Assembly: GCA_015501585.1 (NCBI GenBank)
Contig: JADNRY010000002.1
Span: 620,001-684,000 of the forward strand
From: Rhodocollybia butyracea
Lineage: Eukaryota > Basidiomycota > Agaricomycetes > Agaricales > Omphalotaceae
DNA length: 64,000 nucleotides
Reading direction: 5' to 3'
Shown: positions 18,943-59,299 of the stretch, in pieces
Numbering within the stretch: position 1 is the first letter of the stretch
Layout: the number at the start of each line of letters is the position of its first letter
Translations under genes and position numbers: made by a program
Notes under the pieces: generated by a model
What the model was told of the DNA's origin: nothing
Seen by the model: the letters and a program-made list of their open reading frames with translations, nothing else
The model's database searches: none

Positions 18943-19220
18943 TGTTGGATTAAGTAATCTGACACACCTATGACTTGTGAGAAAGTGTTATCTTAAGGAC
19001 ATATGTCCAAAGACCAAAGTCCCATACTAAGGCAGTGTAATATGTAAGTCCAAAGATGTTAGTTGGGATTAGTAGTCAGCTTTGACACTTAAGAGATACA
19101 AGTTCATAGTTGTTATCCATGGCCAGATAGCTCAGTTGGTTAGAGCATCTTGGGATTTCACCAGAAGGTCCTGGGTTCAATCCCCAGTCTGGACACTTTG
19201 TATAAATCATACCTTTAACA
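18943..19220 (+). mobile_element. tRNA-bearing LTR, family A, copy A1
   Basis: 278 bp from TGTTGGATTAAG to CTTTAACA, flanked by GTTTT on both sides (18,938-18,942 and 19,221-19,225). It interrupts gypsy coding sequence whose reading frame resumes on the other side once the insert and one duplication copy are removed. The tRNA-like module is in the distal half. The TG...CA ends and fixed 5-bp duplication indicate integrase-mediated insertion, unlike a SINE. Confidence 0.85.
19121..19194 (+). tRNA. tRNA-like module of A1
   Basis: 74 nt. Acceptor arms GGCCAGA/TCTGGAC pair except at position 2. The A box TAGCTCAGTTGG matches the Pol III consensus, the T arm CTGGG-TTCAATC-CCCAG is perfect, and the B box GGTTCAATCCC is intact. 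The anticodon arm pairs poorly, so this is a tRNA-derived Pol III promoter rather than a proven decoding tRNA. Confidence 0.6.
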
Positions 19221-19400
19221 GTTTTCTGAGACTCGCTCATGCATTGCTGCTATGAAAGTCCAGTGTTTTGATAAAGCTTGGGCAACAATATCCAAGTAAC
19301 TCCTCATAAGTCAGAATATGGTTAGGTGGATTGACTAGCCAAGTCAATTCAACTATATCAAAGGGTAGCAGTGGTTCTGCCCCGGCTATGAGGGAGTTTT

Positions 19401-20272
19401 CTGAAAGTTTTTTGAAAATTTTGGATAGCAGAATGGCCCATATTGATGTCCCTTAGGGATCTGTAAACAAGGAGGATTATTGGCCACTTCTATGCCTATC
19501 AGGCATAGATTAGTATTATACTTCATACTATTGACAAGCATGGGTTTCCCATCAATTTAGCACATGACTTCATAGTAAGCCACATCAACACATTGCAGAG
19601 CAATTTACTTCTTAACATCCACTCTTTTCATGCCCAAAGTCACACCTGACCACAAAAGTGACCCTAAGAAAAAGAGAACCCACCATGACCAAAGAAATGG
19701 CACAACTGTACAGAAGCATCTAGACTGGCACTTTGATGCCAAAGGTTACAGTAAATATAAAGAAGTCTGCCTTGCCTTTTACTTTTAATTGCTGAGACAT
19801 GACACCCAAGACATGGACACGATCATGACTGATGGACAATCTGGACAGTATTGGAGAATGAAGCCTGATGGTTGTGAGCTGACCAATTGTCTTAGATATG
19901 ACTTTCCTTCCTCAACCCACCAACTCGTAACCTTGTTGGTGAAATTATGCATGTTTGTCAAGGCAAGTGACAGAAAAATTGTACTGGAGAAGTTTGCTGA
20001 GGTTATACCCTGTGAGGTCCAGTACCAGATCCTATCTCTTTGGGATTGGTAAGTTACCGCCCTCTGATACTTGGTTCGTCTCTCTGAAGGCTGAAGGAAT
20101 TGTGGAGAGCTACTGCCACCTGATCCTCCAGAGTCTTGGGATACTGGCTGTACCAGAGGGTAGCACAGAGAGTTTCTGCCACCTCATTCTGATACATTCA
20201 CCAGGGAGTACAGGGGAGTGCGGAGAGCTATCGCCACCTGATACTCTGGAGGTTTCTGGAATTCTGGAACAT
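19401..20272. other. Unassigned, with ~57-60 bp degenerate tandem units
   Basis: No gene recognised. From about 20,050 to 20,265 a unit containing GAGAGCTACTGCCACCTGAT recurs about four times with variation. Open frames at 19,789 and 19,955 cross it but have no recognisable domain. Confidence 0.4.
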
Positions 20273-21267
20273 CCTATGCCTTTCATCACTCAGTAGTGAA
20301 TAAGTTAGCCAAAACTCAGGCCCCAGGCCCATAAATTAAGCAGATCATGAAGTGCTATGTACTGAATACATGCATGTAAGAACTAAAGGAATGCATACTA
20401 CAAAACAGAGTTGAAAAAAAGAGAAGACAAAACAAACATACATTGGTTTATACAGTTACATCAAGATAAAATGAGGGAGAGGAGGGAGGGTGATGAAAAA
20501 TCGACTTGATCAAGCAAGATCTAAGTCAGATATCAGTTACAGTACACAGGCAAAAAACATTGATCTAAGCGCACTGAGAGCCCTGATATCCAAGATCTGA
20601 CAACTAGGTTGACTTCAGAGGCTGTAGATGTGTATAGATCTGTTATGGATCTGTTATGGGCTCTGTTCAGTGAAAGATCAGTTAGATCAGTGAAAAAGTG
20701 CACCAATTCCTTTGATCTGGGACTCTGTGAGCAAGAGCTAGAGTCTGTGCAGTCAAAAGGAGGTGCTGTGAGGTGATGTTTGAGCTATCAGAGCTGTATA
20801 GAGTGGACAGATGTCCTTACCAGTCACCAGAAGCAAAGTTGATGGTGGGGGAAGGAAGGAAAGAAGCACAGGACCTTGTCAGATTTCTAATCATGTTCTC
20901 ACAGGCCTCTGCTTAGAACTCCGGCACCTGTAAGAACTAAAAACTTGACATGGACACTGGCTGATCATCTGTCAAAGTGGCAGCTGACCAGAGATGGTCA
21001 TGTGCTGAAAAACTCGAAATGCAAAGTTCAAGTTGTAGAGTGCTGGATTTTGAAAATGAAATCACAGAAGAATGAAGATAGGTAGCGCTTCAGTTATTTT
21101 TGCAATTTGTTAAGGACATTGCAGGACCGCACAGTACTGCAATGAAGTGCGCCAGACTTGCAATGAATTCATGTGCACTGAAAAGTGATGAATTGTGCAT
21201 TGCAAGTCCTGGATGTTTGCAGAGGCCTTCAGAAAGTCTCCCTACCCTTGGAATCTGCCTTCATGTC
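20273..21267 (-). mobile_element. Short DIRS-like derivative (mini-DIRS 1)
   Basis: 995 bp carrying the two ends of the DIRS-like elements seen later (the 3' terminus CCTATGCCTTTC at its low end and the 5' terminus near TTCATGTC at its high end) but no coding region. The end at 20,273 matches 41,699 onward for about 95 bp. The region from about 20,500 matches the 5' untranslated region of the full elements (for example 47,620-48,347). The intervening ~190 bp is not found in the full copy seen here. Confidence 0.75.
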
Positions 21268-21490
21268 AAGCATTGTAGCGCAGAGCATTATGCCCCCTGA
21301 AACTTGCCATGTCTTTCTTGAATTAATGAGATGAGTGAATCGCAATCAAGTGTCATAAGGTGAGGACTTGCAGTATAGTATAAAGAAATATGAACCAAAT
21401 GAAGTGGGGTAACAATAAGGCCAAAAGATTGAATAATAAATAACAGAGTTCTGATGGGGGCACTACCTACTTTGCACAATGCTCGCTTCA
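21268..21490. other. No feature recognised
   Basis: Flank of mini-DIRS 1. No gene, repeat boundary or RNA found. Confidence 0.5.
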
Positions 21491-21715
21491 CTTGGGCATG
21501 ACTCCTTTTGTTTGGGCATTGCTCATTTCATTTGGTCGTTACTTGCTTGATTTGGGCATTGCTTCTCTCATTTGAGCATTACTCATTTCATTTGGGCATT
21601 GCCTGCTTGATTTGGGTGTTTCTCCATCACTTGGGCATTGCTTGCTTGATTTGGGGGTTGCTCCCTCACTTGGGCGCTACTGGCTTCACTTGGGCATTGC
21701 TCCCTCACTTGTGTA
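21491..21715. repeat. Minisatellite of ~24-bp TTGGGCATTGCT units
   Basis: About nine or ten diverged copies of a unit like TTTGGGCATTGCTCACTTCA. The frame through it reads as repeated HLGIACLIW-type words, an artefact of the array. Confidence 0.8.
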
Positions 21716-22043
21716 TGATTGTCATTGTCATTGTTATCCCTGGTGTGGATACTAGGCTAGGTTCCTTCTTCCAAATACACAAGCTCCCTATAGTATGTCA
21801 ATGAGGAGATTTGAAAGGCAGGTCTGCAGCTGAATAAAAAGGTAAAATCTTGCTTTTCAATGAGTTCACTGAAAATACCTTCTTGAAATGTCTTGTTGGC
21901 TGTAGCAATCACATTCAGCTCTTGCTCAGACCACTCTCTCTGCATTCCATCAAACTGTATATCACCTATTGCCTCATCTAATAGTTCTGCAAGGTGTCAT
22001 TAGAATAACAAGTCAATCAAATAGAAAAGAAAAACCTCCATAG

Positions 22044-22338
22044 TGTTAGAGAATCAGGTGACCAGGATCAAGGAGTACCTTGTCCCAAATCAAGTGACCT
22101 TGAAACAGGAGGGAAATAAATGTTGACACTAGCTGGGATTGAACCAGCGACCACACAGTACTCTAGACTGGTGCTCTAACCAACTGAGCTATAGTGCCAA
22201 TGGTTAGAGTATGGATGTTAAGCCATATATCACTATGAGGATTGTTAGTCACTCAACTGGCCCACATTTATGTTGTACTGAAGCAGTTAGTATTAGTACT
22301 AGAATGATGTAACTAGAGTCCAATTGCTAATGCCAACA
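22044..22338 (-). mobile_element. tRNA-bearing LTR, family B, copy B1
   Basis: 295 bp, minus orientation (TGTTGGCATTAGC...CTCTAACA), flanked by a perfect CATAG duplication (22,039-22,043 and 22,339-22,343). Confidence 0.9.
22125..22198 (-). tRNA. tRNA-like module of B1
   Basis: 74-nt cloverleaf: 7-bp acceptor (GGCACTA/TAGTGTC, one G-U pair), D arm GCTC/GAGC, T arm GCTGG/CCAGC, a 4-of-5 anticodon stem around a loop with T33 and AGA at 34-36. Intact A and B boxes. AGA would be a Ser anticodon, but the variable loop is only 6 nt, unlike a Ser tRNA, so decoding is doubtful. Confidence 0.65.
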
Positions 22339-23010
22339 CATAGTATTCCCATCTGGATTGATGTGTATGCAACTCTATCGGAACCCCCCCCATAATCTGG
22401 TTTGGTCATATGGGTCTTCAGTGAGTCTTTGAGCCATTGCTCTCTAATTTTTGCATTCATTGCCAATCCTTCCCTGATGGATGCACCTTTCATTTCCTTG
22501 AGCCAAATTGCAAAGTCTTCCTTGCACTCATGCATTTTTGATTGGTTAAAAGCATTTTGTCCCCTTTTGCAATACATCTCTTCATACAAGTCCATCAATA
22601 TTCTCTGTGTTGTTGTTGTTGAATCAGGTGGTCCAGGAGTGGTGGGCGGATGTGAGGGTTGGCCCCTACTTACTATTGCTTCAAGAAGATAGGCAAGCTG
22701 AAATTACACACTGGATAGAAGAAGAAGGAGGAATGTGATCCATCTCCTTGTTGTCATCCAATAGCCTGGTATAGCATGTTTCAAAAAGGTCAAGAAGGGA
22801 TGGATTTCCACATGCAGTTTCTGTAGGTATCTTGCAAAGAAGCAGGAGCATCCTCCAGAGAGAGGCTTGCCTGTCTAACCAGCAGGGGATCAGTAAAAGA
22901 ATTGGTGAACCAGGAAATGATCTCAGATGCCTAGGGGGGGGGATTTGGTGCTGGTGCATGGAGAAGGAAGCATTGGGCAGAGAACACATAGAGGAAGATA
23001 CATCTACCAC

Positions 23011-23526
23011 AGCTCTCTCAACTTGGCTGGATCATAGGTATTTAGCAGAATGTTGGAATCTTTCAACAGATGACACACCTCTGAGAAGCTCTGTCCAGTG
23101 TTAATCTCTGATCTTTCAGATGTTCATTGTTATCAGATCTAGCCCCCAGCTTTAGTACAAAAAAAAACTAAACTGGAAGAAATAGATGTGCCTTGGAACA
23201 GCAGCACCACAATGACCACAATTAGATGATGCCTTTGTAGTTTTCTCCTCTTCATTTGGTGTTGTTGCATTCAACATGCCACCGACTTTATTGGAGGCTC
23301 TTGCCAAAGTTCTGTTATGCATCATCATAGAGAGACCTGGGCTGATAAAGAGAAAGTCGGTAAGATTATCAATGAATAAAGAAATAATCACACATCTCGG
23401 GATGGCAATTCTATGTGATCTCCAAGACATTAAGAGAGGATTGACAAGTGGCAAGCTGCACAGATGGTGGTGATTGAAACAAAAGAGTTAAAATGAAAGA
23501 GATGCTAGAGCAGGCTGATTAGATGC
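23011..23526. other. No feature recognised
   Basis: Contains a poly-A run near 23,160 and a weak minus-strand frame (23,152-23,454) without a known domain. It ends at the target duplication of the next element. Confidence 0.4.
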
Positions 23527-23692
23527 TGTTGGTTAATGAAGACTCTTAGACTCTGAGATGGCTCTGAGATGGCTCTGAGATGGCGGTTCAAGACTACTAT
23601 TAGATCATTATCAAGGGTTGTAGTTACACATCATTTGTATATATGTGTTTGTCCACAGCCTCGATTGAGCAGCCCAGGACAAATATCCAACA
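23527..23692 (-). repeat. 3' LTR of the gag-only element
   Basis: 166 bp, against 144 bp for the 5' LTR. The 22-bp excess is exactly two extra copies of an 11-bp unit (CTCTGAGATGG) near 23,550-23,583. Otherwise the two LTRs appear identical. Confidence 0.92.
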
Positions 23693-23702
23693 CTCCCCCT
23701 CT
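23693..23702 (-). promoter_or_regulatory. Polypurine tract of the gag-only element
   Basis: On the minus strand AGAGGGGGAG lies immediately before the 3' LTR, the expected place for plus-strand priming. Confidence 0.75.
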
Positions 23703-23740
23703 GCGAAACAAAGAGAGCTCCCCCTAAGCTATAAATATAA

Positions 23741-24838
23741 TCAAGCATGAAAATCAATATACTCCTCCTCTTCAAAGGGTGGACAAGTAGGATGAGCAGA
23801 AAAACCATAAGTATCAATAGGAGTAATGAAATGTGAAGAGATGTTATTGGGAGGGTTGTGAGTGATGTGTGCAGTGTCATATGTGTGATTAAGACACCAG
23901 TGCTTGACTTCCTCTGGCATGTCCTTGACACAGTTAGAAGCCTTGTGCAACATACCTCCACAACGGTGACAGCCATCCATAGACATATCGCACCAGCGAT
24001 TTCCGTGACTGTCTATAAATCCTTGTCCATCTTCATGGCCGCTTCCATTGGAAGCTCCCCCTCTTCCTCCCCCTCTACCACTAAAACTTTCCCTAGTACC
24101 AGATCCATTCCGACTTCCTCCTTTACTTCCCTTTCAGAAAGCTGTAGCATAAGCATGAGCAGCCTCTACACGGGAGGATGGTTCAGACGGGTTATTAATC
24201 CCATCTAAAATTTCATCGGCTCTCTTCTCAGGGTCAAATGAAACCATAGCACTCTCAAGAACAGTGCGGCAGGTTTTAAGATTGGGCTCGCCAGTAGGTT
24301 GGGCGAGAAGAGATGTTTTCCAGGCCTCGAATGATGAATGAAGGTTCTGGAGCATGATATCCTTGTGATAACTATCAGAGATTGTTTCACCGGAAGGGAG
24401 TAGTGCCTGAAGACGAGCACGCATATCATCCAAAGCATCAAGATAGACTTTGGTTGGTTTAAGCGGATCATGCGTAATGCGGTGATAGGCAGCACGTGTA
24501 GCTGAACGTGAGGAAAATGATGATTTTTCAAAATAGGAGACAAGTGCACTCCAGATTTCGGAAGCATTTGTCTTATCCTTGTAGATGTTTCGGCAGTCTC
24601 GATTAGTGAGGGATTTAATGATGGACGCAGCCTGTGAGTTGAGTCGATCCCATTCCTTGGCATCAGCAGCCTCTGATGGATGTGAAGTCAACCCTGTGGC
24701 AATCTTGGCGCTCTGACCATCTGCACTAAGCACCATTTGCAGAACATCCTCTTTCCAGTTGCTCCAGTCATCAGCATTTGTAGTGGAAAGTAGGGGAATG
24801 TTCCTTCCAAGATTAAGAAGAGCTGAAAGTGTGGCCAT
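23741..24838 (-). pseudogene. Copia-type Gag (UBN2-like) with CCHC knuckle, one internal stop
   Basis: Structural capsid protein of a copia-type element. It starts at ATG 24,838 (MATLSALLNLGRN). Residues 20-230 read as a UBN2-type Gag (WSNWKEDVLQMV, IWSALVSYFEKSS, DILDG-type motifs). A Gly/Ser/Arg-rich linker follows, then a CCHC zinc knuckle (C-x2-C-x4-H-x4-C, CHRCGGMLHKASNC) near 23,945, and an acidic end. A single in-frame TGA at 24,134-24,136 splits a frame of about 366 codons; the same frame continues directly after it. CGA-to-TGA decay is the simplest explanation; programmed readthrough, as used by some retroelements, is not excluded. No protease or pol follows. Confidence 0.85.
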
Positions 24839-24965
24839 AGTGAATGAATATGAGTCGTTGAAAAGGAATTGGGGATGGGATGATGAAATGAGTGAGATTG
24901 AGTGATTGGGTGAAAAGTAAAGCTCCTAGATGATGAATAAAACTCCTAGATGTATAGTGTGGACA

Positions 24966-24979
24966 CGGGGCCCATAACC
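24966..24979 (-). promoter_or_regulatory. Primer-binding site of the gag-only element
   Basis: GGTTATGGGCCCCG on the minus strand, directly after the 5' LTR and identical to that of copia-1, although the LTRs are unrelated. Confidence 0.8.
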
Positions 24980-25123
24980 TGTTGGTTAATGAAGACTCTT
25001 AGACTCTGAGATGGCGGTTCAAGACTACTATTAGATCATTATCAAGGGTTGTAGTTACACATCATTTGTATATATGTGTTTGTCCACAGCCTCGATTGAG
25101 CAGCCCAGGACAAATATCCAACA
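24980..25123 (-). repeat. 5' LTR of the gag-only element
   Basis: 144 bp, TGTTGGATATTTG...TTAACCAACA, a very short LTR. Confidence 0.92.
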
Positions 25124-25128
25124 GATGC

Positions 25129-25514
25129 CATCAAAACTGATTAACTTTATTGCCACAATACACAGCTACTAACTGACCACCATCATGCACAAGACTGTAG
25201 CTACAGACTTCACCACCAAACATTCACTGCCAGTACCTCAGTATATTACCTCTGAAAAAGGGACAGAAGTATAATATATTTTTCCCCTGAATTTTAGCAT
25301 TTTTTTCCAATGAAAAAGAGTGAATATTGCCTCAGAAATAGGCATGGGAAAATAAGTCCTTTTTTGGTGTCTATTTTGGTCAAAATAGGGCGCTAATTAT
25401 GCCATCAATTTTGTTTGATTTATTACTAATTTTTTGGCATCAATTTCTTTCATATTTCTTTAGACAAAGAAAATATATTTCAATGGTAATATGTTAACTA
25501 TTTTGGCTGCAAAA
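25129..25514. other. AT-rich stretch without recognised feature
   Basis: No frame or terminal repeat. It runs up to the truncated LTR of copia-2. Confidence 0.5.
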
Positions 25515-25807
25515 TATTGGAGTACTGAGGACTATAAGGCTATTAGTACAACACTATAGTTGTTATACTGAGCATAACAACACTGTACTAAGACGGGTAG
25601 CACACTGCTTGGGTTAGCTGAAGGGCGCTCCAGTGTGTTTAACTTCAACAAGTGCCACAGTTCCCTTCAACAGGTTATGGGCCCCGTGTTCTAACTGTGC
25701 ATTTCGTTGTTGTGTTCTTGTTACCTCTTTACTTGTGTGCTCCTCAGTAGTTCTATACTATTGTTGTCTTTCTATACTATCAATTGGCTCAGTTGGCTAT
25801 TATCACT

Positions 25808-28786: not shown

Positions 28787-28788
28787 TA

Positions 28789-29348: not shown

Positions 29349-29642
29349 TGTTAAAGTCATGATTTATACAAAGTGTCCAGACTGGGGATTGAACCCAGGA
29401 CCTTCTGGTGAAATACCAAGATGCTCTAACCAACTGAGCTATCTGGCCATGGTTATCAACTATGAACTTGTATCTCTTAAGTGCCAGAGCCTCTCCAAAG
29501 GTTCTTACAGAATGCCCAACTGGAAAGGTCTCACATCTACTAGGAATGCCCCAAGTAAGGTCTCACATCATGCCTTTATAATGGAGATCATTTGGATACA
29601 CACTTGACAAGTCATATGTGTGTCAGATTATGTCATCCAACA
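29349..29642 (-). mobile_element. tRNA-bearing LTR, family A, copy A5
   Basis: 294 bp, minus orientation, flanked by perfect GTTAC duplications (29,344-29,348 and 29,643-29,647). Nearly identical to A6 (59,006-59,299), so the two form a young subfamily. Confidence 0.92.
29375..29448 (-). tRNA. tRNA-like module of A5
   Basis: 74 nt, same structure as in A1: intact A box, B box and T arm, one acceptor mismatch, poor anticodon arm. Confidence 0.6.
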
Positions 29643-38765: not shown

Positions 38766-39074
38766 TGGAATTAATGTTTTATTGCTACTGTTCCAGACTC
38801 TGGCTTGCCCACGGGCCACCTATCCTGCTGCAGACTGCCCGATGCAACATGACATCATTAGGATCGGAACTGTTTTTCAGTTCTGACTTAGACTGTAGCG
38901 CTGGAGCGCCAATTGCATAGTATCACATACTATTGGACCTCTTTTGGGCCTCGGCTATGTAGAATTCATATCATAGATATTACTTTGTCTGATGTTTGAT
39001 GTGACTATGTGACAAGAGCATCTCACAACCTTTACATGCCAACTCACATGCCAAGGCAAATGCCCCCGGTGTCA

Positions 39075-39451
39075 TATTCCTTCTAGTTCACTATTTTGCC
39101 TAGTTTACTTAGTTTTAGAGTTATTTCTTCAGTTTGAGTGGTGACTGTTGAAAATATGTATGCGCACACAATTGTGGTTTCACGCCTCATGCATTTCTAT
39201 ACAAATAAAACCAAACAAATACCTATTCCTTACTTAGTTAGAAAGAGTCCAAATCAATATTCACATATCTTTGATTCATTTCATTGTTTGCTGTCTATTG
39301 GAGTACTGAGGAACTATAAGGCTATTAGTACAACACTATAGTCGTTATACTGAGCATAACAACGCTGTACTAAGACGGGTATCACACTGCTTGGGTTAGC
39401 TGAAGGGCGCTCCAGTGTGTTTAACTTCAACAAGTGCAGTTTCCTCCAACA
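39075..39451 (+). repeat. Second part of the copia-3 5' LTR
   Basis: Continues the LTR broken at 30,555, ending CCTCCAACA, directly followed by the primer-binding site. Confidence 0.9.
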
Positions 39452-39602
39452 GGCTACGGGCCCCGCGCCCAACCGTGCACTTCGTTGTTGTGTTCTTGTT
39501 ACCTCTTTACTTGTGCACTCCTCAATAGTCCTATACTATTGTTGTCTTTCTATACTATCAATTGGCTCAGTTGGCTTGTTGGCTCAGTTGGCTATTATCA
39601 CT

Positions 39603-40390
39603 ATGTCTTTCACTTCTACCACTTCCAACCCATCTTTCAAAGTTCTTACCAAGGACAACTACAATGATTGGGTTGGTAATATGAAGGCATCTCTGATGTC
39701 TCAAGGTCTATGGAGACTAGTATCTGGCAAGAGGCTAAGCCCTCAGATCCAGCTCTGTTGGACAAGTGGGAAATTAAAGCTGAAAAGGCTGCTGGATTGA
39801 TTTTTCTTGCTGTCAGCTCGCCTCAGCAGGTCCCTATTAAGGCATACCAAGAGGATCCCATTGCTATGTGGAGCATTCTAGAGAAACAGCATGTGTCAAA
39901 GAAGCCTGGTGCTAGGTTTAATGCCTACAATGCACTTTTCACTATCACAAAGCTGGCTGATGAGTCTCTCATGGACATGGCCTCTAGAGTGGAAGCTGCT
40001 ATGGCTGACATTCAAAATCTTCGACCCACTGTTGCTCCTATTGTCTCTGGATCCACTGGCTTCACATTGGACTCACTTGACTCTGAGCTTCAATCAATGG
40101 CTCTCATTCGTGCACTCCCTGAGGAGTATAAACATCTATCATCCAACCTGCTTATGCAGGACAATCTTGACAAAGACATGATTCTTGCTGCTTTCCTTGC
40201 TGAACAGCAGAATCAAGCTCATGCTGAGCAGTCTGTCAATAGAGCACAAGTTGCTCAACAGAAGGAGAAAGGTGGATATGGAAACAACAAGTTTCCACCT
40301 AGGGTTGGTGAACCTAGAAACTTTTGTGCCCATTGTGGAATCAAAGGTGTACATTGGCCGGAAGACTGTCCCAGTCATCCTAACAAAAAC
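39603..40390 (+). pseudogene. copia-3 Gag
   Basis: ATG 39,603 begins a Gag with NYNDWVGNMKASLM, EKAAGLIFLAVSS, LEKQHVSKKPGARFNAYNAL and a zinc knuckle (CAHCGIKGVHWPEDC, C-x2-C-x5-H-x4-C). One base is lost near 39,730, moving the frame to that running to 40,390. It ends by fusion to LTR sequence. It is much better preserved than copia-2 gag. Confidence 0.88.
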
Positions 40391-40665
40391 TATTTTCATG
40401 CCTCATGCGTTTCAGTACAAATAGAACCAAACAAATACCTATTCCTTACATAGTTAGAAAGAGTCCAAATCAATATTCACATATCTTTGATTCATTTCAT
40501 TGTTTAGTGTCTATTGGAGTACTGAGCAACTATAAGGCTATTAGTACAACACTATAGTCATTATACTGAGCATAACAACACTGTACTAAGACGGGTATCA
40601 CACTGCTTGGGTTAGCTGAAGGGCACTCCAGTGTGTTTAACTTCAACAAGTGCAGTTCCCTTCAA
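40391..40665 (+). repeat. Truncated 3' LTR of copia-3
   Basis: L-family LTR lacking its first ~220 bp and last two bases; bounded by gag and a mini-DIRS. Confidence 0.88.
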
Positions 40666-42876: not shown

Positions 42877-43172
42877 TGTTAGAGAAATCAGGTGACCAGG
42901 ATCAAGGAGTACCTTGTCCCAAATCAAGTGACCTTGAAACAGGAGGGAAATAAATGTTGACACTAGCTGGGATTGAACCAGCGACCACACAGTACTCTAG
43001 ACTGGTGCTCTAACCAACTGAGCTATAGTGCCGATGGTTAGAGTATGGATGTTAAGCCATATATCACTATGAGGATTGTTAGTCACTCAACTGGCCCACA
43101 TTCATGTTGTACTGAAGCGGTTAGTCTTAGTACTAGAATGATGTAACCAGGGTCCAATTGCTAATGCCAACA
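42877..43172 (-). mobile_element. tRNA-bearing LTR, family B, copy B2
   Basis: 296 bp, minus orientation, perfect GTTTT duplication (42,872-42,876 and 43,173-43,177). It splits the RNase H reading frame between codons for VLKT and GIDIR, which join cleanly if it is removed. Confidence 0.95.
42959..43032 (-). tRNA. tRNA-like module of B2
   Basis: 74 nt, same cloverleaf as B1 with intact A and B boxes. Confidence 0.65.
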
Positions 43173-47619: not shown

Positions 47620-48347
47620 ATGATGAAAAATCGACTTGATCAAGCAAGATCTAAGTCAGATATCAGTCAGTATACAGTACACAGGCAAAAAACATCGATC
47701 TAAGCGCACTGAGAGCCCTGATATCCAAGATCTGACAACTAGGTCGACTTCAGAGGCTGTAGATGTGTATAGATCTGTTATGGATGTGTTATGGGCTCTG
47801 TTCAGTGAAAGATCAGTTAGATCAGTGAAAAAGCGCACCAATTCCTTTGATCTAAGACTCTGTGAGCAAAAGCTAGAGTCTGTGCAGTCAAAAGGAGGTG
47901 CTGTGAGGCGATGTTTGAGCTATCAGAGCTGTATAGAGTGGACAGATGTCCTTACCAGTCACCAGAAGCGAAGTTGATGGTGGGGGAAGGAAGGAAAGAA
48001 GCACAGGACCTTGTCAGATTTCTAATCATGTTCTCACAGGCCTCTGCTCAGAACTCCGGCACCTGTAAGAACTAGAAACTCGACAGGGACACTGGCTGAT
48101 CATCTGTCCAAAGTGGCAGCTGACCAGAGGTGGTCATGTGCTGAAAAACTCGAAATGCAAAGTCCAAGTTAGAGTGCAGGATTTCGAAAATGAAATCACG
48201 GAAGAACGAAGATAGGTAGCGCTTTGATTCTTTTCGCGATTTGTTAAGGACATGATAGAGTACCTATGACAGTAATAGCAGGGCCGCACGGTACTGCGAT
48301 GAAGTGCGCTGGACTTGCAATGAATTCATGTGCACTGAAAAGTGATG
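47620..48347 (-). other. 5' untranslated region of DIRS-1
   Basis: Conserved ~740 bp region upstream of ORF1, shared with all DIRS copies and the mini-DIRS. An open frame of 113 codons runs antisense (47,636-47,977) and recurs in every copy (40,898; 49,940; 54,090; 62,141), probably because the region is well conserved, but a small antisense product cannot be excluded. Confidence 0.6.
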
Positions 48348-48594
48348 TCATGTGCAAATATCCCATCCCAAATCTATAAGGCAATATGTAAGTCCAAAGA
48401 GTCAATATGTAGGTCCGAAGATATAGATGTTGGGACAATATGGGTGTTGCACCTCTGACAGTACTTCAGGGATCTTCCATTAGCTGTAACCATGGCCAGA
48501 TAGCTCAGTTGGTTAGAGCATCTTGGGATTTCACCAGAAGGTCCTGGGTTCAATCCCCAGTCTGGACACTTTGTCAGTCATTATAACTTTAACA
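48348..48594 (+). mobile_element. tRNA-bearing LTR, family A, copy A2 (5'-truncated)
   Basis: Lacks the TGTTGG end; begins where the DIRS-1 5' region stops. Ends TAACTTTAACA at 48,594, directly against copia RNase H coding sequence. No duplication can be tested. Confidence 0.75.
48494..48567 (+). tRNA. tRNA-like module of A2
   Basis: 74 nt, identical in its boxes and T arm to A1. Confidence 0.6.
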
Positions 48595-51409: not shown

Positions 51410-51905
51410 TGTTGAGTGTACATAGTGCTGTCACACATCTGCTTACCTAATCACCTTCCCACGACCATATTCCATCTCTAAAGTATATACTTTTATAGTA
51501 AAGTTTGATTACATTCTTCATATTCCTTCTAGTTCACTATTTTGCCTAGTTTACTTAGTTTTAGAGTTATTTCTTCAGTTTGAGTGGTGACTGTTGAAAA
51601 TATGTATGCGCGCACAATTGTGGACACCTATTTTCACGCCTCATGCGTTTCAGTACAAATAGAACCAAACAACTACCTATTCCTTACTTAGTTAGAAAGA
51701 GTCCAAATCAATATTCACATATCTTTGATTCATTTCATTGTTTGCTGTCTATTGGAGTACTGAGGAACTATAAGGCTATTAGTACAACACTATAGTCGTT
51801 ATACTGAGCATAACAACGCTGTACTAAGACGGGTATCACACTGCTTGGGTTAGCTGAAGGGCGCTCCAGTGTGTTTAACTTCAACAAGTGCAGTTTCCTC
51901 CAACA
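51410..51905 (+). repeat. L-family LTR, complete
   Basis: 496 bp, inserted after AATAG in the L2 LTR. The right side (TCCAA) does not match, so what lies beyond is not the old target. Confidence 0.9.
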
Positions 51906-51920
51906 TCCAATTGGGGGTTG

Positions 51921-52216
51921 TGTTGGCATTAGCAATTGGACCCTGGTTACATCATTCTAGTACTAAGACTAACCGCTTCAGTACAACATGAATGTGGGCC
52001 AGTTGAGTGACTAACAATCCTCATAGTGATATATGGCTTAACATCCATACTCTAACCATCGGCACTATAGCTCAGTTGGTTAGAGCACCAGTCTAGAGTA
52101 CTGTGTGGTCGCTGGTTCAATCCCAGCTAGTGTCAACATTTATTTCCCTCCTGTTTCAAGTTCACTTGATTTGGGACAAGGTACTCCTTGATCCTGGTCA
52201 CCTGATTTCTCTAACA
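51921..52216 (+). mobile_element. tRNA-bearing LTR, family B, copy B3
   Basis: 296 bp, + orientation. Preceded by CCAATTGGGGGTTG, a polypurine-tract-like sequence as found before the copia 3' LTRs, so it may be the 3' LTR of a once longer element. It is followed by copia coding sequence beginning GAATG; no duplication on the left. Confidence 0.85.
52061..52134 (+). tRNA. tRNA-like module of B3
   Basis: 74 nt, B-type cloverleaf, A and B boxes intact. Confidence 0.65.
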
Positions 52217-52380
52217 GAATGTGCACATGTTGGGTCGACTCTACCTCTTGATCTTGAGCTGTGGCATAGACGCTTCTTTCACTACAATCTGAGTGATGTG
52301 TTAGAGAAATCAGGTGACCAGGATCAAGGAGTACCTTGTCCCAAATCAAGTGACCTTGAAACAGGAGGGAAATAAATGTT

Positions 52381-52454
52381 GACACTAGCTGGGATTGAAC
52401 CAGCGACCACACAGTACTCTAGACTGGTGCTCTAACCAACTGAGCTATAGTGCC
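52381..52454 (-). tRNA. tRNA-like module of B4
   Basis: 74 nt, B-type cloverleaf, boxes intact. Confidence 0.65.
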
Positions 52455-52487
52455 GATGGTTAGAGTATGGATGTTAATCCATATATC

Positions 52488-52776
52488 TGTTGGGATTAAT
52501 AATCAATCCTGACACCCTACAATGGTGAGATGTATGTGTTATGTGTAAATGCCCTTGTCTATATAATCAACCTAGGGGGTTGGATCAAAAGATATCCATG
52601 TAATGCCTTATAATGGTTGAGGACACTAGGGCACCTCTGTCACTACATTGATGAGATACCAAGTAGTTGTAACCATGGCCAGATAGCTCAGTTGGTTAGA
52701 GCATCTTGGGATTTCACCAGAAGGTCCTGGGTTCAATCCCCAGTCTGGACACTTTGTATAAATCATACCTTTAACA
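52488..52776 (+). mobile_element. tRNA-bearing LTR, family A, copy A3
   Basis: 289 bp inserted in B4 with a perfect ATATC duplication (52,483-52,487 and 52,777-52,781). Confidence 0.94.
52677..52750 (+). tRNA. tRNA-like module of A3
   Basis: 74 nt, A-type module with intact A and B boxes. Confidence 0.6.
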
Positions 52777-53827
52777 ATATCACTATGAGGATTGTTAGTC
52801 ACTCAACTGGCCCACATTCATGTTGTACTGAAGCGGTTAGTCTTAGTACTAGAATGATGTAACCAGGGTCCAATTGCTAATGCCAACATGATGTTAGCAA
52901 GCTGTCTAAAAATCGGTTGGTTGAGGGCTTTAAACTCGATTCTAGTGCAAAGCCAGACCCAGTATGTGAACCATGTCTTGGTGGAAAGATGCATGCCAAT
53001 CCTTTTCCTAGCAGTGAAACTCGTGCTTTTGAAATTTTAGAACTTGTTCATATGGATGTACATGATACTGGTGTAATCTCGCCTTCTGGCTACCGCTACT
53101 GGATCCCCTTTATATGCGACAAATCACGCTTCAGAGCAGTTGTACTACTCAAAAAGAAGAGTGAAGCCTTTGGTGCATTCAAGCGGTTTAAGGCCTGGGC
53201 AGAAAACTCTACTGGTAAAAAGATCAAGAAGATCAGACATGACAAAGGTGGCGAGTTTATATCCAAGGAATTTGAACAGTTCTTACAGCACGAGGGAATT
53301 GAAGTACAACGGACAACTAGGAATCAACCTCAGCAGAATGGAGTTGCTGAACGGCTTAACCGGACATTGGCTGAATTACTGACTGCTATGCTACTTGAAT
53401 CGGGTTTACCAAAGACATTTTGGGCTGAATGCCTGGCTGCGCTTGTTTATGTGTTAAATCGATGCCCAACGTCTGCTGTTCCAGAAGTCACTCCTTTTGA
53501 AGCCTGGTATAAAATTAAGCCTAAAGTTGACAATCTGTGTGTCTGGGGATGCATTGCTTATGTGCATATTCAAAAGGACAAGAGGCCTCACTTTGGTTCA
53601 CATATGGAGAAGTGTGTGTTTATTGGTTACCCTGAGGGAGTTAAAGGCTGGAAGTTCTGGAATCCTGTCACTAAAAAGGTCATCATCAGTGAACGTGCAG
53701 AATTTGACAAAAGGTTCATGTATGGATCCAAGTCACCTAATCAGCCTGCCCTTCGTCAAGACCATACTCCTGTGACTAGTTCTGAACCATCTGCTACTCC
53801 CAAACCACCAGCCAGTACCACTAATGA

Positions 53828-54761
53828 ATGTAAGTAACTAAAGGAATGCATACTACAAAAACAGAGTTGAAAAAGAAAAGACAAAACAAACAAACATTGG
53901 TTTGTACAGTTACATCAAGATAGAAAGAGGGAGAGGAGGGAGGGTGATGAAAAATCGACTTGATCAAGCAAGATCTAAGTCAGATATCAGTCAGTATACA
54001 GTACACAGGCAAAAAAACATCGATCTAAGCACACTGAGAGCCCTGATATCCAAGATCTGACAACTAGGTCAACTTCAGAGGCTGTAGATGTGTATAGATC
54101 TGTTATGGATGTGTTGTGGGCTCTGTTCAGTGAAAGATCAGTTAGATCAGTGAAAAAGCGCACCAATTCCTTTGATCTGAGACTCTGTGAGCAAAAGCTA
54201 GAGTCTGTGCAGTCAAAAGGAGGTGCTGTGAGGCGATGTTTGAGCTATCAGAGCTGTATAGAGTGGACAGATGTCCTTACCAGTCACCAGAAGCGAAGTT
54301 GATGGTGGGGAAAGGAAGGAAAGAAGCACAGGACCTTGTCAGATTTCTAATCATGTTCTCACAGGCCTCTGCTCGGAACTCCGGCACCTGTAAGAACTAG
54401 AAACTCGACAGGGACACTGACTGATCATCTGTCCAAAGTGGCAGCTGACCAGAGGTGGTCATGTGCTGAAAAACTCGAAATGCAAAGTCCAAGTTAGAGT
54501 GCTAGATTTCGAAAATGGAATCGCGGAAGAACGAAGATAGGTAGTGCTTCAATTCTTTTCGCGATTTGTTAAGGACATGATAGAGTACCTATGACAGTAA
54601 TAGCAGGACCGCACGGTACTGCGATGAGGCGCGCCGGACTTGCAATGTATTCATGTTCACTGAAAAGTGATGAATTGTGCATTGCAAGTCCTGGATGGTA
54701 TCTGTTGTTTGCAGAGGCCTTCAGAAAGTCTCCCTACCCTTGGAATCCGCCTTCATGTCGA
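53828..54761 (-). mobile_element. Mini-DIRS 3 (3'-truncated)
   Basis: Lacks the first ~110 bp of the low end (CCTATGCC side) and ends at the 5' terminus CTTCATGTCGA (54,761). Otherwise collinear with mini-DIRS 1 and 2. Confidence 0.8.
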
Positions 54762-55030
54762 GTATTTGTTTGGTTCTATTTGTACTGAAACGCATGAGGC
54801 GTGAAAATAGGTGTCCACAATTGTGCGCGCATAGATATTTTCAACAGTCACCACTCAAACTGAGAAAATATCTTGCAAACTGAACAAATGAAAGCCAAAA
54901 AGTAAACTAGGGCAGATATCAACATGGTAACAAAAGATTACTATAAAAGTACATAGTTTAGAGACGGAATATGAGTGTGGGACATCGCTTATGTAAGCAG
55001 TAAGTGTTCTATCACTATATACACTCAACA
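54762..55030 (-). repeat. Truncated 3' LTR of copia-4 (L2)
   Basis: Begins TGTTGAGTGTATATAG on the minus strand and is cut where mini-DIRS 3 ends. Polypurine tract TCAGGGGGTTG adjoins it (55,031-55,041). Confidence 0.88.
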
Positions 55031-55105
55031 CAACCCCCTGATTGAACACTTTTGCAATCCAGCACAAGTCAATCACTAACACAACCCCCCAACATAGTAT
55101 TTCCT

Positions 55106-55800
55106 TCAACTAGGAAGGTTTGGCTTTTCCACCTTTGGTTTGGCAAGGGCCTTTGTGAGCAGCTCGGCTGGATTATCCTCAGTGGGCAAATAAGAGAGTG
55201 TAAGCTTCCCACGTACAACTTGTTCTCTGAGCCAGTAGAAAGTCCTGTCAAGATGCTTCATTCGGCCGTGATGTTCAGGATTTTTAGCAACCTGAATGGA
55301 TGATTGGTTGTCGGTGAGGATAATGGTAGGAGAAGCGACTTTATACCCAAGCTCATTGAGAAGAAAACGTATTGCCAACACTTCTTTGCCCACTGCATTT
55401 GAAGCCACAAACTCAGCTTCAGTAGAGGATAGAGTAACCACAGGTTGTAGTTTACTACTCCAGCTAACAGCACCTGATCCAACCTTTATGATGTATCCAG
55501 TTGTTGACTTCCCATTGTCTTTGTTGCCACCCAAGTCTGCATCACCAATAGCTGTGATCAGATCGGGGGCATCAGGATCTGGCCCTAGTTCCAACTCATA
55601 GTCAAGAGATCCTTTCAAGTAATGCCACAAATGCTTAACAGCAATCCAATGAGCATATCCAGGATTAGAGTTGAAACGAGTCAAGACACCACATGCATAA
55701 GCTGTGTCGACACGAAGGATCATGGCCAGAAACAATAGGGAGCCAACAGCTGACATGTAGGGGACATTGATCATCTCTTCTTTCTCCTCTGGTGTTTGGG
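55106..55800 (-). pseudogene. copia-4 RT thumb and RNase H
   Basis: Frame resumes after a one-base loss in a C run (near 55,800) relative to the upstream RT frame. It includes the pre-RNase H segment (YMSAVGSLLFLAM, VDTAYACGVLTRF) and RNase H with GDADLGG, STTGYI, SSTEAEF, DNQSSI and HLDRTFYW. It ends KPNLPS at 55,106, shorter than the copia-5 copy by a C-terminal deletion. Confidence 0.88.
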
Positions 55801-56472
55801 GCAGTCCGCTTTAGAGAGTGTCACAGTGGGATTCATGGGAGTGCCCACAGGCTTGGAATCAGTCATGCCAAATTCATTGAGTTTACAGAGGATGTATTGC
55901 CGGGCATTAAGATATAGTTTTTGATTCTGGCGGTCTCCTCTGATTCCCGTGCCAAGTAAGAAGTTGGTACTGCCCAAGTCACGGAGTTTAAGTTCTTTTC
56001 GTAGATCATGGACAAATTGATCTATAACACCAGAGTCTTTACAAGCAAGAGTGATATTTAGCCTGCAAACTTTCTCTGGTCCACCTTGCTTGAAACCCTC
56101 GGGCTGTCTCATGTAGATAGTTGTGTCAATATCAGAATTAATAAACGCATGTGAGATATCAACAGAGCGAAGCTCCATATCATCAATAGCAGCAAGAGCA
56201 AGTACAATGCGTAATGAGGACCAGCGGAGAGTTGAAGCATAGGTTTCAAGATAGTTGAATCCAGGTCTTTGGCTGAAGCCTTGAGCACACAAGCGTGCTT
56301 TGAAGCGTTCAATAGAGCCATCAGCCTTGTGCTTAATATGGTATACCCAAGTTGACCCAATTGCTTTCTCTCCTGGTGGCAAGTCAACAATATCCCAAGT
56401 CTGGTTTGCTAAATGAGCAGCAATCTCATCATCCATTGCTTCTTCCCACTTAAAGGCTTCTGGACTGCGCAT
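55771..56472 (-). pseudogene. copia-4 reverse transcriptase lacking its active site
   Basis: Starts in the EAMDDEIAAHLANQTWDIVDLPPG region and GSTWVYHIKHKADG, then LRIVLALAAIDDMELRSVDISHAF and YMRQPEGF. It then jumps from KVCRLNITL straight to ACKDSGVIDQFVHDLRKELKLRDLG. In the family these are separated by about 60 residues with the LYGLKQ segment and the catalytic (Y/F)xDD box. The deletion (near 56,048) is in frame, so the frame looks healthy while the enzyme cannot polymerise. Confidence 0.88.
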
Positions 56473-56624
56473 AGCGTCTCGATAATTTCGAGGTTCTACA
56501 CCGTTAGCAGCATGTCCATGTTCCTCTACATCTCCATTGTATTCATCAGAGTCAGCAGGCTCATTATGGGCATTGCCCTTAGAAGCAGGTTTGACTTCCC
56601 ACCATCTACCAGGAGGTTTATGGC

Positions 56625-56894
56625 TGTTAGAGAAATCAGGTGACCAGGATCAAGGAGTACCTTGTCCCAAATCAAGTGACCTTGAAACAGGAGGGAAATA
56701 AATGTTGACACTAGCTGGGATTGAACCAGCGACCACACAGTACTCTAGACTGGTGCTCTAACCAACTGAGCTATAGTGCCGATGGTTAGAGTATGGATGT
56801 TAAGCTACTCAACTGGCCCACATTCATGTTGTACTGAAGCGGTTAGTCTTAGTACTAGAATGATGTAACCAGGGTCCAATTGCTAATGCCAACA
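56625..56894 (-). mobile_element. tRNA-bearing LTR, family B, copy B5
   Basis: 270 bp; shorter than the others by a 26-bp internal deletion near 56,802. Flanks are ATGGC and CGTGC, so no clean duplication; coding sequence nevertheless resumes on both sides. Confidence 0.85.
56707..56780 (-). tRNA. tRNA-like module of B5
   Basis: 74 nt, B-type cloverleaf, boxes intact. Confidence 0.65.
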
Positions 56895-57123
56895 CGTGCA
56901 GGGCGACGTACAGCAATGGGTTGCTCATCAGATTCATCCTCGTCAGTCACAGGTAATTTGGGCTCTGGGGTGGGAGCAAGAGCAGGAGGTGCATTAAGGG
57001 GAGGCACATCATCTTCATCAGCAGAGGCGGGTTCAGAGTCTGATTCATCACAAAAAGCAGGAGGTGTGAATAGATCATTACAGGTACTAGATGGATTGGG
57101 AGTAGCAGATGGTTCCGGAGGAG

Positions 57124-58309
57124 TCACAGGAATGTAGTCTCAATGAAGGGTAGGCTGATTAGGTGACTTTGATCCATACATGAATCTTTCATCAAATTCT
57201 GCACGTTCGCTGATAATGACCTTTTTAGTGACCAGATTCCAGAACTTCCAGCCTTTAACTCCCTCAGGATACCCAATGAATACACACTTTTCCATGTGTG
57301 AACCAAAATGTGGCTGCTTGTCCTTTTGAACATGAACATATGCAATGCATCCCCAGACACGCAAGTTGTCAACCTTTGGCTTGACTTTATACCAGACTTC
57401 AAAAGGAGTGACACCTGGGACAGCAGACGTTGGGCATCGATTAAGCACATAAACAAGCGCAGCCAGGCATTCAGCCCAAAATGTCTTTGGTAAACCCGAT
57501 TCCAGTAGCATAGCAGTCAGTAATTCAGCCAATGTCTGGTTAAGCCGTTCAGCAACTCCATTCTGCTGGGGTCAATTCCGGGCTGTTCTCTGCACCTCAA
57601 TCCCCTCGTCTTTCAAGAACTGTTCCATTGCTTTGGATATAAACTTGCCACCTTTGTCATGACGGATCACCTTGATCTTTTTACCAGTAGAGTTTTCTGC
57701 CCAGGCCTTAAGTTAACTGCTTGAATGCACCAAATGCTTCACTCTTCTTTTTGAGTAGTGCAACTGCTCTGAAGCGTGATTTGTCGCATATAAAGGGGAT
57801 CCAATAGCGGTAGCCAGAAGGCGAAACAACACCAGTATCATGTACATCCATATGAACAAGTTCTAGAACTTCACCAGCACGAGTATCACTGCTAGGAAAC
57901 GGATTGGCATGCATCTTTCCACCAAGACATGGTTTACATACTGGGTCTGGCTTTGCACTAGAATCGAGTTTAAAGCCCTCAACCATACCATTTCTAGACA
58001 GCTTGCTAACATCACTCAGATTGTAGTGAAAGAAGCGTCGATGCCACAGCTCAAGGTCAAGAGGTAGAGTTGAACCGATGTTTGCAAACTCAGCTACTGT
58101 ACTAATAGTGTGTCCATTAAGGTAACCAACCCATTTATTATTAACTGATGCAGTGAACAGGACAGAACCATCAAGTGAGAACTCCATAGTATCTCTAAGA
58201 ATTTGTACAGTAAAACCTTTATGCTTGGTCAAGTAAAGAACTGAGAGGAGATTGTTATTAAGAGCCGGTACATGTAAAACTTGTCTAACTTCTTCTTTGC
58301 CATCAACAA
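57124..58309 (-). pseudogene. copia-4 pre-integrase and integrase
   Basis: Minus-strand frame from about 58,309 (KEEVRQVLHVPALNNNLLSVL) through LELWHRRFFHYNLSDV, CKPCLGGK and HMDVHDTG. A 4-bp insertion near 57,711-57,715 then shifts the frame. RHDKGGKF follows, then a TGA before PQQNGVAERLNQ (57,570), then the integrase C-terminus (57,532-57,140). The acidic triad is visible, but two lesions prevent a product. Confidence 0.88.
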
Positions 58310-58311
58310 TA

Positions 58312-58600
58312 TGTTAAAGGTATGATTTATACAAAGTGTCCAGACTGGGGATTGAACCCAGGACCTTCTGGGAAATCCCAAGGTGCTCTTAACCAACTGA
58401 GCTATCTGGCCATGGTTACAACTACTTGGTATCTCATCAATGTAGTGACAGAGGTGCCCTAGTGTCCTCAACCATTATAAGGCATTACATGGATATCTTT
58501 TGATCCAACCCCCTAGGTTGATTATATAGACAAGGGCATTTACACATAACACATACATCTCACCATTGTAGGGTGTCAGGATTGATTATTAATCCCAACA
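58312..58600 (-). mobile_element. tRNA-bearing LTR, family A, copy A4
   Basis: 289 bp, minus orientation (TGTTGGGATTAATAATC...CCTTTAACA), same subfamily as A3. No matching duplication (CAATA and CACTC). In its own orientation it is preceded by GGTTATGGGCCCCG, about 45 bp, then GCGGGAG, i.e. a primer-binding site, a tiny interior and a purine tract. Confidence 0.88.
58338..58411 (-). tRNA. tRNA-like module of A4
   Basis: 74 nt with an extra A in the D loop and a changed anticodon arm; A and B boxes intact. Confidence 0.55.
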
Positions 58601-58668
58601 CACTCCCGCAATCTGACACACTTATGTAACCTATTCTCCCACACCATAGTGCTTCGGGGCCCATAACC
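58601..58668 (-). other. Primer-binding site, short interior and purine tract beside A4
   Basis: On the minus strand: the 14-base primer-binding motif (58,668-58,655), a short interior without coding sequence, and TTGCGGGAG against the TGTTGGG end of A4. This is what the interior of a terminal-repeat miniature element would look like; the 5' side, however, is an L LTR. Confidence 0.6.
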
Positions 58669-59005
58669 TGTTGGAGGAAACTGCACTTGTTGAAGTTAAA
58701 CACACTGGAGCGCCCTTCAGCTAACCCAAGCAGTGTGATACCCGTCTTAGTACAGTGTTGTTATGCTCAGTATAACGACTATAGTGTTGTACTAATAGCC
58801 TTATAGTTCCTCAGTACTCCAATAGACAGCAAACAATGAAATGAATCAAAGATATGTGAATATTGATTTGGACTCTTTCTAACTATGTAAGGAATAGGTA
58901 TTTGTTTGGTTCTATTTGTACTGAAACGGATGAGGCGTGAAAATAGGTGTCCACAATTGTGCGCGCATAGATATTTTCAACAGTCACCACTCAAACTGAA
59001 GAAAT

Positions 59006-59299
59006 TGTTGGATGACATAATCTGACACACATATGACTTGTCAAGTGTGTATCCAAATGATCTCCATTATAAAGGCATGATGTGAGACCTTACTTGGGGC
59101 ATTCCTAGTAGATGTGAGACCTTTCCAGTTGGGCATTCTGTAAGAACCTTTGGAGAGGCTCTGGCACTTAAGAGATACAAGTTCATAGTTGATAACCATG
59201 GCCAGATAGCTCAGTTGGTTAGAGCATCTTGGGATTTCACCAGAAGGTCCTGGGTTCAATCCCCAGTCTGGACACTTTGTATAAATCATGACTTTAACA
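59006..59299 (+). mobile_element. tRNA-bearing LTR, family A, copy A6
   Basis: 294 bp inserted in an L LTR with a perfect GAAAT duplication (59,001-59,005 and 59,300-59,304). The uninterrupted target is known from every other L LTR. Confidence 0.96.
59200..59273 (+). tRNA. tRNA-like module of A6
   Basis: 74 nt, A-type module with intact A and B boxes. Confidence 0.6.

What the first reader, a model, noticed from the sequence alone, without database searches (positions are those of the whole stretch)
18943..59299. Two families of LTRs that carry a tRNA gene-like module
Eleven repeats (A1-A6, B1-B5) have TG...CA ends, 278-296 bp where complete, and a 74-nt tRNA-like module with Pol III A and B boxes in their interior. 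Seven copies have perfect 5-bp target duplications: GTTTT (A1), ATATC (A3), GTTAC (A5), GAAAT (A6), CATAG (B1), GTTTT (B2), TGATG (B4). A fixed 5-bp duplication and TG...CA ends point to retroviral-type integrase, not the L1-type machinery of SINEs. Plant Cassandra elements hold a 5S rRNA gene in the LTR in the same way; I do not know of a described tRNA counterpart in fungi. Pol III transcription from within an LTR would make a non-coding parasite of copia elements.
Basis: partly seen in the sequence, partly recalled or inferred. Interest (0 to 1): 0.93.

Follow-up and report, generated by a model that had tools for sequence, protein, structure and literature searches.

The report
tRNA-bearing mini-retrotransposons with helper hybrids
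These repeats are tiny parasitic jumping elements (a known type called Helenus) that carry a tRNA-like switch in their ends, and hybrids in the same genome show which larger element copied them.

Summary
All eleven copies and all seven 5-bp target duplications are real, and the copies are LTRs, not SINEs. In the window's own genome (unnamed, 95.6 Mb) 67 of 73 unique solo LTRs have a duplication of exactly 5 bp, and paired LTRs occur around interiors of only 58-68 bp that begin with a primer-binding site. The kind is not new: tRNA-bearing miniature LTR elements were described as Helenus (Kojima 2024, PMC10886601), in fungi too. What appears new is mechanistic. Nine independent hybrid elements have a foreign 5' LTR; in six it comes from a Copia element, X. 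Five of six testable hybrids are flanked by a perfect 5-bp duplication, so they were integrated as fused cDNA. All nine belong to families sharing the GGTTATGGGCC primer site; none of the 7 two-LTR elements of family B, whose primer site differs, is of this sort (one odd X-B junction lacks the primer site). This fits intermolecular plus-strand transfer between co-packaged cDNAs and names a helper. LTR types are 95-100% alike from the tRNA-like start onward but 52-65% alike upstream, suggesting that the RNA starts there. Pol III transcription itself was not tested. LTR swapping is known in plants.

The parts
18943..19220 (+). A1-type Helenus LTR, solo, tRNA-like module 19121-19196, duplication GTTTT
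22044..22338 (-). B-type LTR, solo, module 22122-22199, duplication CATAG
29349..29642 (-). A-type LTR, solo, module 29373-29448, duplication GTTAC
42877..43172 (-). B-type LTR, solo, module 42958-43032, duplication GTTTT
48345..48594 (+). D-type LTR lacking its first 44 nt, module 48494-48569
51410..51905 (+). X (Copia) LTR joined through the last 15 nt of a B interior to the B LTR at 51921
51921..52216 (+). B-type LTR, module 52061-52135, no matching duplication
52299..52888 (-). B-type LTR (pieces 52299-52487 and 52777-52888) split by the C-type LTR; outer duplication TGATG
52488..52776 (+). C-type LTR nested in the B LTR, module 52677-52752, duplication ATATC
56625..56894 (-). B-type LTR with a deletion, module 56706-56780, no duplication, beside a Copia reverse-transcriptase ORF
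58312..58600 (-). C-type LTR, 3' LTR of a hybrid element, module 58337-58411
58601..58668 (-). 68-nt interior of family C; primer-binding site GGTTATGGGCCC at 58657-58668; purine-rich end next to the 3' LTR
58669..59005 (-). X (Copia) LTR, right part, serving as 5' LTR of the hybrid
59006..59299 (+). A-type LTR, solo, nested in that X LTR, module 59200-59275, duplication GAAAT
59299..59468 (-). X (Copia) LTR, left part, of the hybrid
39072..40450 (+). X element 5' end: LTR 39072-39451 (first 108 nt missing), interior start with a diverged primer site, Copia-type gag ORF 39680-40450 (PF14223)
25515..25772 (+). X-type LTR end, then GGTTATGGGCCCC primer site and X interior start
54762..56649 (-). 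X element 3' part: Copia reverse transcriptase (PF07727) 55774-56649, purine tract region 55031-55099, X2 LTR 54762-55030

Best explanation
The repeats are LTRs, mostly solo, of several Helenus-type elements: LTR about 290 nt, interior 58-68 nt, LTR about 290 nt, no coding capacity. Inferred working: RNA is started just upstream of the tRNA-like module in the 5' LTR by an internal A-box/B-box promoter. The RNA is packaged in particles of a Copia element. Reverse transcription is primed at GGTTATGGGCCC, which by recall is the complement of the initiator-tRNA anticodon arm (families A, C, D), or at TGGTAGCAGC, the 3'-end type (family B). The Copia integrase inserts the cDNA with a 5-bp duplication. 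Supported by sequence: Copia X and families A, C and D were reverse-transcribed together, because their cDNAs were fused at the shared primer site and integrated as hybrids with one LTR from each. The polarity (the 5' LTR is the foreign one in all nine) is that of an intermolecular second (plus-strand) transfer. Exchange of the right part of the LTR among left parts is the mark of an intermolecular first transfer from an RNA that starts near the tRNA-like module.
For: LTR pairs with matching outer duplications and up to 100% LTR identity (7 of 11 complete same-family pairs measured are 100%). Exact 5-bp duplication in 67 of 73 unique solo LTRs. X is Copia-type: gag ORF behind an X LTR and RVT_2 upstream of an X 3' end, in two different copies. 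Primer-site 15-mer GGTTATGGGCCCCGA: 118 genome hits against 0 for the reversed pattern. Whole-genome pattern (up to 3 mismatches) for A/C-type interiors: 13 sites, 6 with an X-type 5' LTR end. Hybrid duplications: TTAGC (C1081) and CAAAC (C979); TAATA (C816); GCTAG (D-A, C1238) and CCAGG (A-D, C929/C339). Reverse arrangements: Helenus interior then X LTR 0 hits (up to 1 mismatch); X interior then TGTTGG-type LTR 0 hits (exact pattern). Family B: 7 interiors in the genome, each with B sequence on both sides, in one case only 31 nt on the 5' side. Left parts of A, A1, C and D are 52-65% alike, right parts 95-100%; ungapped identity stops 7-13 nt upstream of the tRNA-like start in the pairs other than A/A1. 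Right-end alleles reassort: type-A left part has 13 A-type and 14 C-type right ends.
Against: No RNA data: Pol III use is inferred. TTTT is absent from the LTR and interior types (P 0.0095 by dinucleotide shuffle), but AAAA is also scarce (1 seen, 4.4 expected, P 0.07), and one ordinary Copia LTR stretch has only 1 TTTT in 400 nt (X has 5 in 497), so avoidance of Pol III terminators is only suggested. The left LTR parts are all somewhat above shuffled similarity (maximum 51.8% in 50 shuffles of the A/C pair), so they are diverged relatives rather than unrelated. The window hybrid (58312-59468) has no matching duplication and non-contiguous flanks. The C1238:3008 hybrid has a C-like interior with a D-like 3' LTR, so interior and 3' LTR do not match there. 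The C772 hybrid rests on 42 nt of 3' LTR. The reciprocal product (Helenus 5' LTR on an X interior) was not found (no exact hit among 21). An X-B junction without the primer site exists at 51410-52216, so B is not wholly apart from X. Foreign 3' LTRs between Helenus types were looked for only in the fetched loci, not by a genome pattern. The initiator-tRNA gene was never retrieved, so primer identity rests on recall and on Kojima's text. No partner was found for family B.
Confidence: 0.8

Rival explanations
1. The hybrids arose on the chromosome by ectopic recombination between an X Copia and a Helenus copy at the shared primer-binding site.
For: The shared stretch GGTTATGGGCCCCG lies at the junction; the window hybrid has unlike flanks, GATAT and TATTG, the latter leading into a Copia gag-pre-integrase ORF.
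Against: Such exchange would leave unlike flanks, but five of six testable hybrids have a perfect 5-bp duplication, and in C979 both flanks are the two halves of one X LTR.
Confidence: 0.12
2. [quoted passage not shown]
For: No RNA was examined; TTTT scarcity has a partial counterpart in AAAA scarcity.
Against: A and B boxes are intact in A-type and B-type copies, and the sharing of LTR sequence begins 7-13 nt upstream of the module, where a tRNA-type start would lie.
Confidence: 0.25
3. SINEs or dispersed tRNA genes spread by L1-type machinery.
For: tRNA-like cloverleaf scores of 40-57 bits.
Against: Fixed 5-bp duplications, TG...CA ends, paired LTRs, primer-binding sites.
Confidence: 0.01
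4. The modules supply working tRNAs to the host.
For: B reads as a Ser-AGA tRNA at 57.2 bits.
Against: B has no long variable arm expected of a serine tRNA (75 nt; recalled rule) and A-type has A in place of the universal U before the anticodon (read from the sequence; recalled rule); Kojima reaches a like conclusion for most Helenus.
Confidence: 0.03

Closest known systems
[quoted passage not shown] Kojima 2024, PMC10886601)
   Same: tRNA-like module with A and B boxes in the LTR, total under 1000 bp, no coding, primer site of the initiator-tRNA anticodon or 3'-end kind, 5-bp duplications, several families per genome, Copia as probable helper, many solo LTRs.
   Different: Sequence identity to published families not tested (supplement not available here). 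A term search of its main text found no 'chimer', 'hybrid' or 'swap'; hybrids with a Copia helper are the addition here.
Cassandra (plant TRIM with 5S rRNA in the LTR)
   Same: Pol III-type promoter inside a small LTR element.
   Different: 5S-derived, plants; described in the Kojima text as starting and ending in the 5S part.
LTR swapping and chimeras of autonomous and non-autonomous LTR elements (soybean, Du 2010; Dasheng/RIRE2 rice, Jiang 2002)
   Same: Non-autonomous element sharing parts with its helper (both papers seen only as titles in reference lists; content recalled).
   Different: Here the donor is an ordinary Copia LTR without tRNA module and the acceptor a tRNA-bearing TRIM, and the fused copies have one LTR of each, five with matching duplications.
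Onsen recombination in Arabidopsis (PMC5668417)
   Same: Recombination between co-packaged LTR-element RNAs during reverse transcription (passages seen).
   Different: Within one LTR-element family.

Membership tests
Helenus | tRNA-derived sequence inside both LTRs | tested here: met
Helenus | TRIM: two LTRs, under 1000 bp, non-coding | tested here: met
   about 645-655 bp, interior 58-68 bp
Helenus | primer-binding site after the 5' LTR and purine tract before the 3' LTR | tested here: met
   GGTTATGGGCC or TGGTAGCAGC; GGGAGTG or GGGGGGTTG. The primer tRNA gene itself was not retrieved (request unanswered), so primer complementarity rests on recall
Helenus | 5-bp target duplications (fungal form) | tested here: met
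   67 of 73
Helenus | mobilised by Copia (fungal form) | tested here: met
   for A, C and D by sequence: X-Helenus and Helenus-Helenus hybrids with duplications; X is Copia-type. For B no helper was found
Helenus | tRNA-like part not a working tRNA | tested here: inconclusive
   sequence features argue against a working tRNA; no tRNAscan-SE isotype test available
Helenus | sequence relation to published Helenus consensus sequences | not testable with these tools
   supplementary files and Repbase not available
TRIMp3 | RNA polymerase III transcription | not testable with these tools
   no RNA data
SINE | variable-length duplications, no paired terminal repeats | tested here: not met
Cassandra | 5S rRNA sequence in the LTR | tested here: not met
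   only the tRNA model reaches its gathering score in the window

The most novel reading that the evidence does not exclude
The hybrids are a fossil record of cDNA fusion inside particles shared by a Copia element and several tRNA-bearing miniature elements. The half-tRNA primer-binding site decides who can fuse with whom. Reading such hybrids across genomes would assign each Pol III-type miniature element to its helper without LTR homology, and the boundary of exchanged LTR sequence would mark the RNA start of elements never transcribed in the laboratory.
Probability: 0.55. Interest if true: 0.66.

Novelty: new member of a known kind. Interest (0 to 1): 0.5.

Why it matters
Kojima 2024 states that it is not known how a miniature LTR element stays dependent on its helper, and infers helpers from primer-site similarity and one shared interior. 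Integrated hybrids with one LTR from each partner are direct sequence evidence of a shared particle, and the absence of such hybrids from family B, with its different primer site (0 of 7), points to the primer-binding site as the compatibility key. It also warns that tRNA counts in such genomes are inflated: in the window alone ARAGORN reports ten tRNA genes, all ten inside these LTRs.

Tried and rejected
Terminator avoidance as proof of Pol III: TTTT is missing from the reference copies of all five LTR types and from the interiors, and 2 of 118 LTR copies carry one; but AAAA is also depleted, so this was kept as a hint only. An autonomous partner of B by primer site: only the 7 B interiors match a 22-nt pattern with up to 2 mismatches. 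Other tRNA-bearing families with the same primer site: 19 sampled loci with that site (of 118 exact hits plus a variant), all 19 without a B box close by and with no tRNA call; a 20th region fetched with them, the D tandem array, carries the module. The initiator-tRNA gene among 20 fetched tRNA loci: not there; the one Met gene is AT-rich and looks mitochondrial. Identifying the organism through proteins: no hit for a 763-aa ORF. The C816 hybrid was first read as a co-integrate with an upstream X; after reading about 9.6 kb more it is a hybrid with a 64-nt 5' extension of X interior and a TAATA duplication, two bases of which also match native X. In the Fisher comparison 0 of 7 B against 9 of 17 others (one-sided P 0.019) the classes were defined after seeing the data. 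The A-type search scored 40 of 95 first-look candidates, the B-type 40 of 51, the C-type 40 of 103, so LTR counts are lower bounds; interior counts come from whole-genome patterns, and the second of these missed at least one copy with an indel (C694:17794). Before the duplication count, 3 of 76 solo LTRs were dropped as duplicate flanks.
Full report
WHAT IS THERE. The window lies at C494:620001-684000 of an unnamed 95.6-Mb genome. ARAGORN finds ten tRNA-like modules and Rfam eleven, all inside repeats of the kind described. I mapped every copy by BLAST against window-derived LTRs. Two refinements: the A set is a mixture of LTR types (A1 at 18943, A at 29349 and 59006, D at 48345, C at 52488 and 58312), and the copy at 58312 is not solo.

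LTRs, NOT SINEs. Own-genome searches with A, B and C LTRs gave 52, 54 and 48 matches, as lower bounds. From the 84 fetched regions covering most of them, 76 complete solo-type LTRs were taken. After removing 3 with duplicate flanks, 67 of 73 have a duplication of exactly 5 bp, and none has an exact 4-, 6- or 7-bp one. Two-LTR copies exist with interiors of 58 (B), 66-67 (A) or 67-68 nt (C, D), for example AGCCA-A-A-AGCCA, GAATT-C-C-GAATT and CACAA-B-B-CACAA. Of 11 complete same-family pairs measured, 7 have identical LTRs, so insertion was recent. The interiors begin with GGTTATGG (mostly GGTTATGGGCC; A, C, D) or TGGTAGCAGC (B; one TGGTGGCAGC) and end in a purine-rich tract.

KNOWN KIND. Kojima 2024 (PMC10886601) describes Helenus: TRIMs whose LTRs hold a tRNA-derived sequence. 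They occur in rust fungi and a few Agaricomycetes, in animals and in one plant. [quoted passage not shown]; supplements not available). Two further searches, for Helenus and for TRIMp3, listed no other primary paper on these elements by title; a 2026 meeting report cites the 2024 paper (passages); one butterfly genome paper with a single 'Helenus' was not opened. The testable defining features are met, except that the test of a non-working tRNA is inconclusive, so these are new members of Helenus. Which published families they match could not be tested. The host species was not identified, and that it is a fungus was not tested.

HYBRIDS. At 58669-59468 (minus strand) the element that ends in the C LTR begins with a quite different LTR of about 497 bp, X, whose own interior starts GGTTATGGGCCCCGTG. 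X belongs to a Copia-type element: a Copia gag ORF follows an X LTR at 39680-40450, and a Copia reverse transcriptase precedes an X 3' end at 54762-56649; these are two different copies. Genome-wide, a pattern for A/C-type interiors found 13, 6 of them behind an X-type LTR end. Other hybrids mix Helenus types: D-A (C1238), A-D (C929 and C339, one insertion duplicated, 99.2% over 1857 bp) and C-D (C772, only 42 nt of the 3' LTR left). That gives 9 independent hybrids and 8 pure elements (the D tandem counted once, C694:17794 with an indel included) among families with the GGTTATGG site, against 0 of 7 for family B (one-sided P 0.019, classes set after seeing the data). One X-B junction of another sort lies at 51410-52216: an X LTR, the last 15 nt of a B interior and a B LTR, with no primer site and no matching duplication.

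WHY THE HYBRIDS COME FROM REVERSE TRANSCRIPTION. Six hybrids could be tested for a duplication. Five have a perfect 5-bp one: TTAGC, CAAAC, TAATA, GCTAG, CCAGG. The window copy has none, and its flanks are not contiguous. In C979 the two flanks are the two halves of one X LTR. In all nine hybrids the 5' LTR is the foreign one. Whole-genome patterns for a Helenus interior followed by an X LTR, or an X interior followed by a TGTTGG-type LTR, gave 0; the same question between Helenus types was answered only from the fetched loci. This is what an intermolecular plus-strand transfer gives: the strong-stop DNA of one element (LTR plus primer site) anneals to the minus strand of another that has the same primer site. 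After one more cycle both LTRs would be equal again, so each hybrid is its own event (inference). A reciprocal product, Helenus LTR on an X interior, was not found. In one hybrid, C1238:3008, a C-like interior is followed by a D-like LTR, so a second exchange must be assumed there.

WHERE THE RNA STARTS. Between A, A1, C and D the LTR left of the tRNA-like module is 52-65% alike; 50 shuffled A/C pairs average 47% with a maximum of 51.8%, so the left parts are diverged relatives. From the module to the LTR end they are 95-100% alike. Apart from the pair A/A1, whose identity runs on to about -39, the ungapped identity stops 7-13 nt upstream of the module. Right-end alleles are reshuffled among left parts. 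Exchange of first-strand strong-stop DNA would do exactly this if the RNA starts there, which is where a tRNA-type Pol III start would be (recalled). Conservation by selection alone is a poorer account, because non-promoter bases are conserved as well. The absence of TTTT is compatible but weak.

PRIOR KNOWLEDGE OF THE MECHANISM. Recombination between co-packaged RNAs is reported for Onsen (PMC5668417, passages), and LTR swapping between partners is the title claim of a soybean paper that I saw only in reference lists. A term search of the Kojima main text found no 'chimer', 'hybrid' or 'swap'. In the listings of searches I saw no title on such hybrids for tRNA-bearing elements.

VERDICT. A well-read, true observation of a kind described in 2024, with an addition: integrated hybrids name Copia X as a helper of families A, C and D and point to the shared primer-binding site as the junction. 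X itself was seen fused only to C-like interiors; A and D are tied to the group by their hybrids with each other and, for D, with C and X.

Noticed in passing
window 3044-8944: A two-LTR Copia element with LTR ends 99.25% alike over 400 nt, the same GGTTATGGGCCCC primer site at 3444, and gag and integrase ORFs (4119-6002, 6136-7011).
   Followed up: partly
window 59723-62014 (-): A 763-aa open frame with no Pfam match and no hit in the protein search; its upstream part overlaps repeats (61626-61925 in three copies, from 61986 in six).
   Followed up: partly
window 51410-52216: X LTR joined through the last 15 nt of a B interior to a B LTR, without the primer site and without a matching duplication; a different sort of X-B junction.
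   Followed up: partly
L130 and L067 (C695:40823-42201): Tandem array of four D LTRs and three interiors with one outer duplication CTCTT.
   Followed up: partly
whole genome: The 67 5-bp target sites have a near-palindromic preference (G/C, T/A, A/T, T/A, C/T).
   Followed up: no
window 337-546: 21-bp tandem repeats built on the palindrome GGTCATGACC; weaker relatives at 11596 and 14070.
   Followed up: no
window 12133-12610 and 13445-13922; 8945-9296 and 10313-10664: Two long inverted repeats at 99% complementarity with 0.8-1.0 kb between the arms; the second begins right after the Copia LTR end.
   Followed up: no
L109:3039-5495: Two long open frames (562 and 242 aa) next to the C816 hybrid; the three frames submitted from this locus had no Pfam match.
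   Followed up: partly
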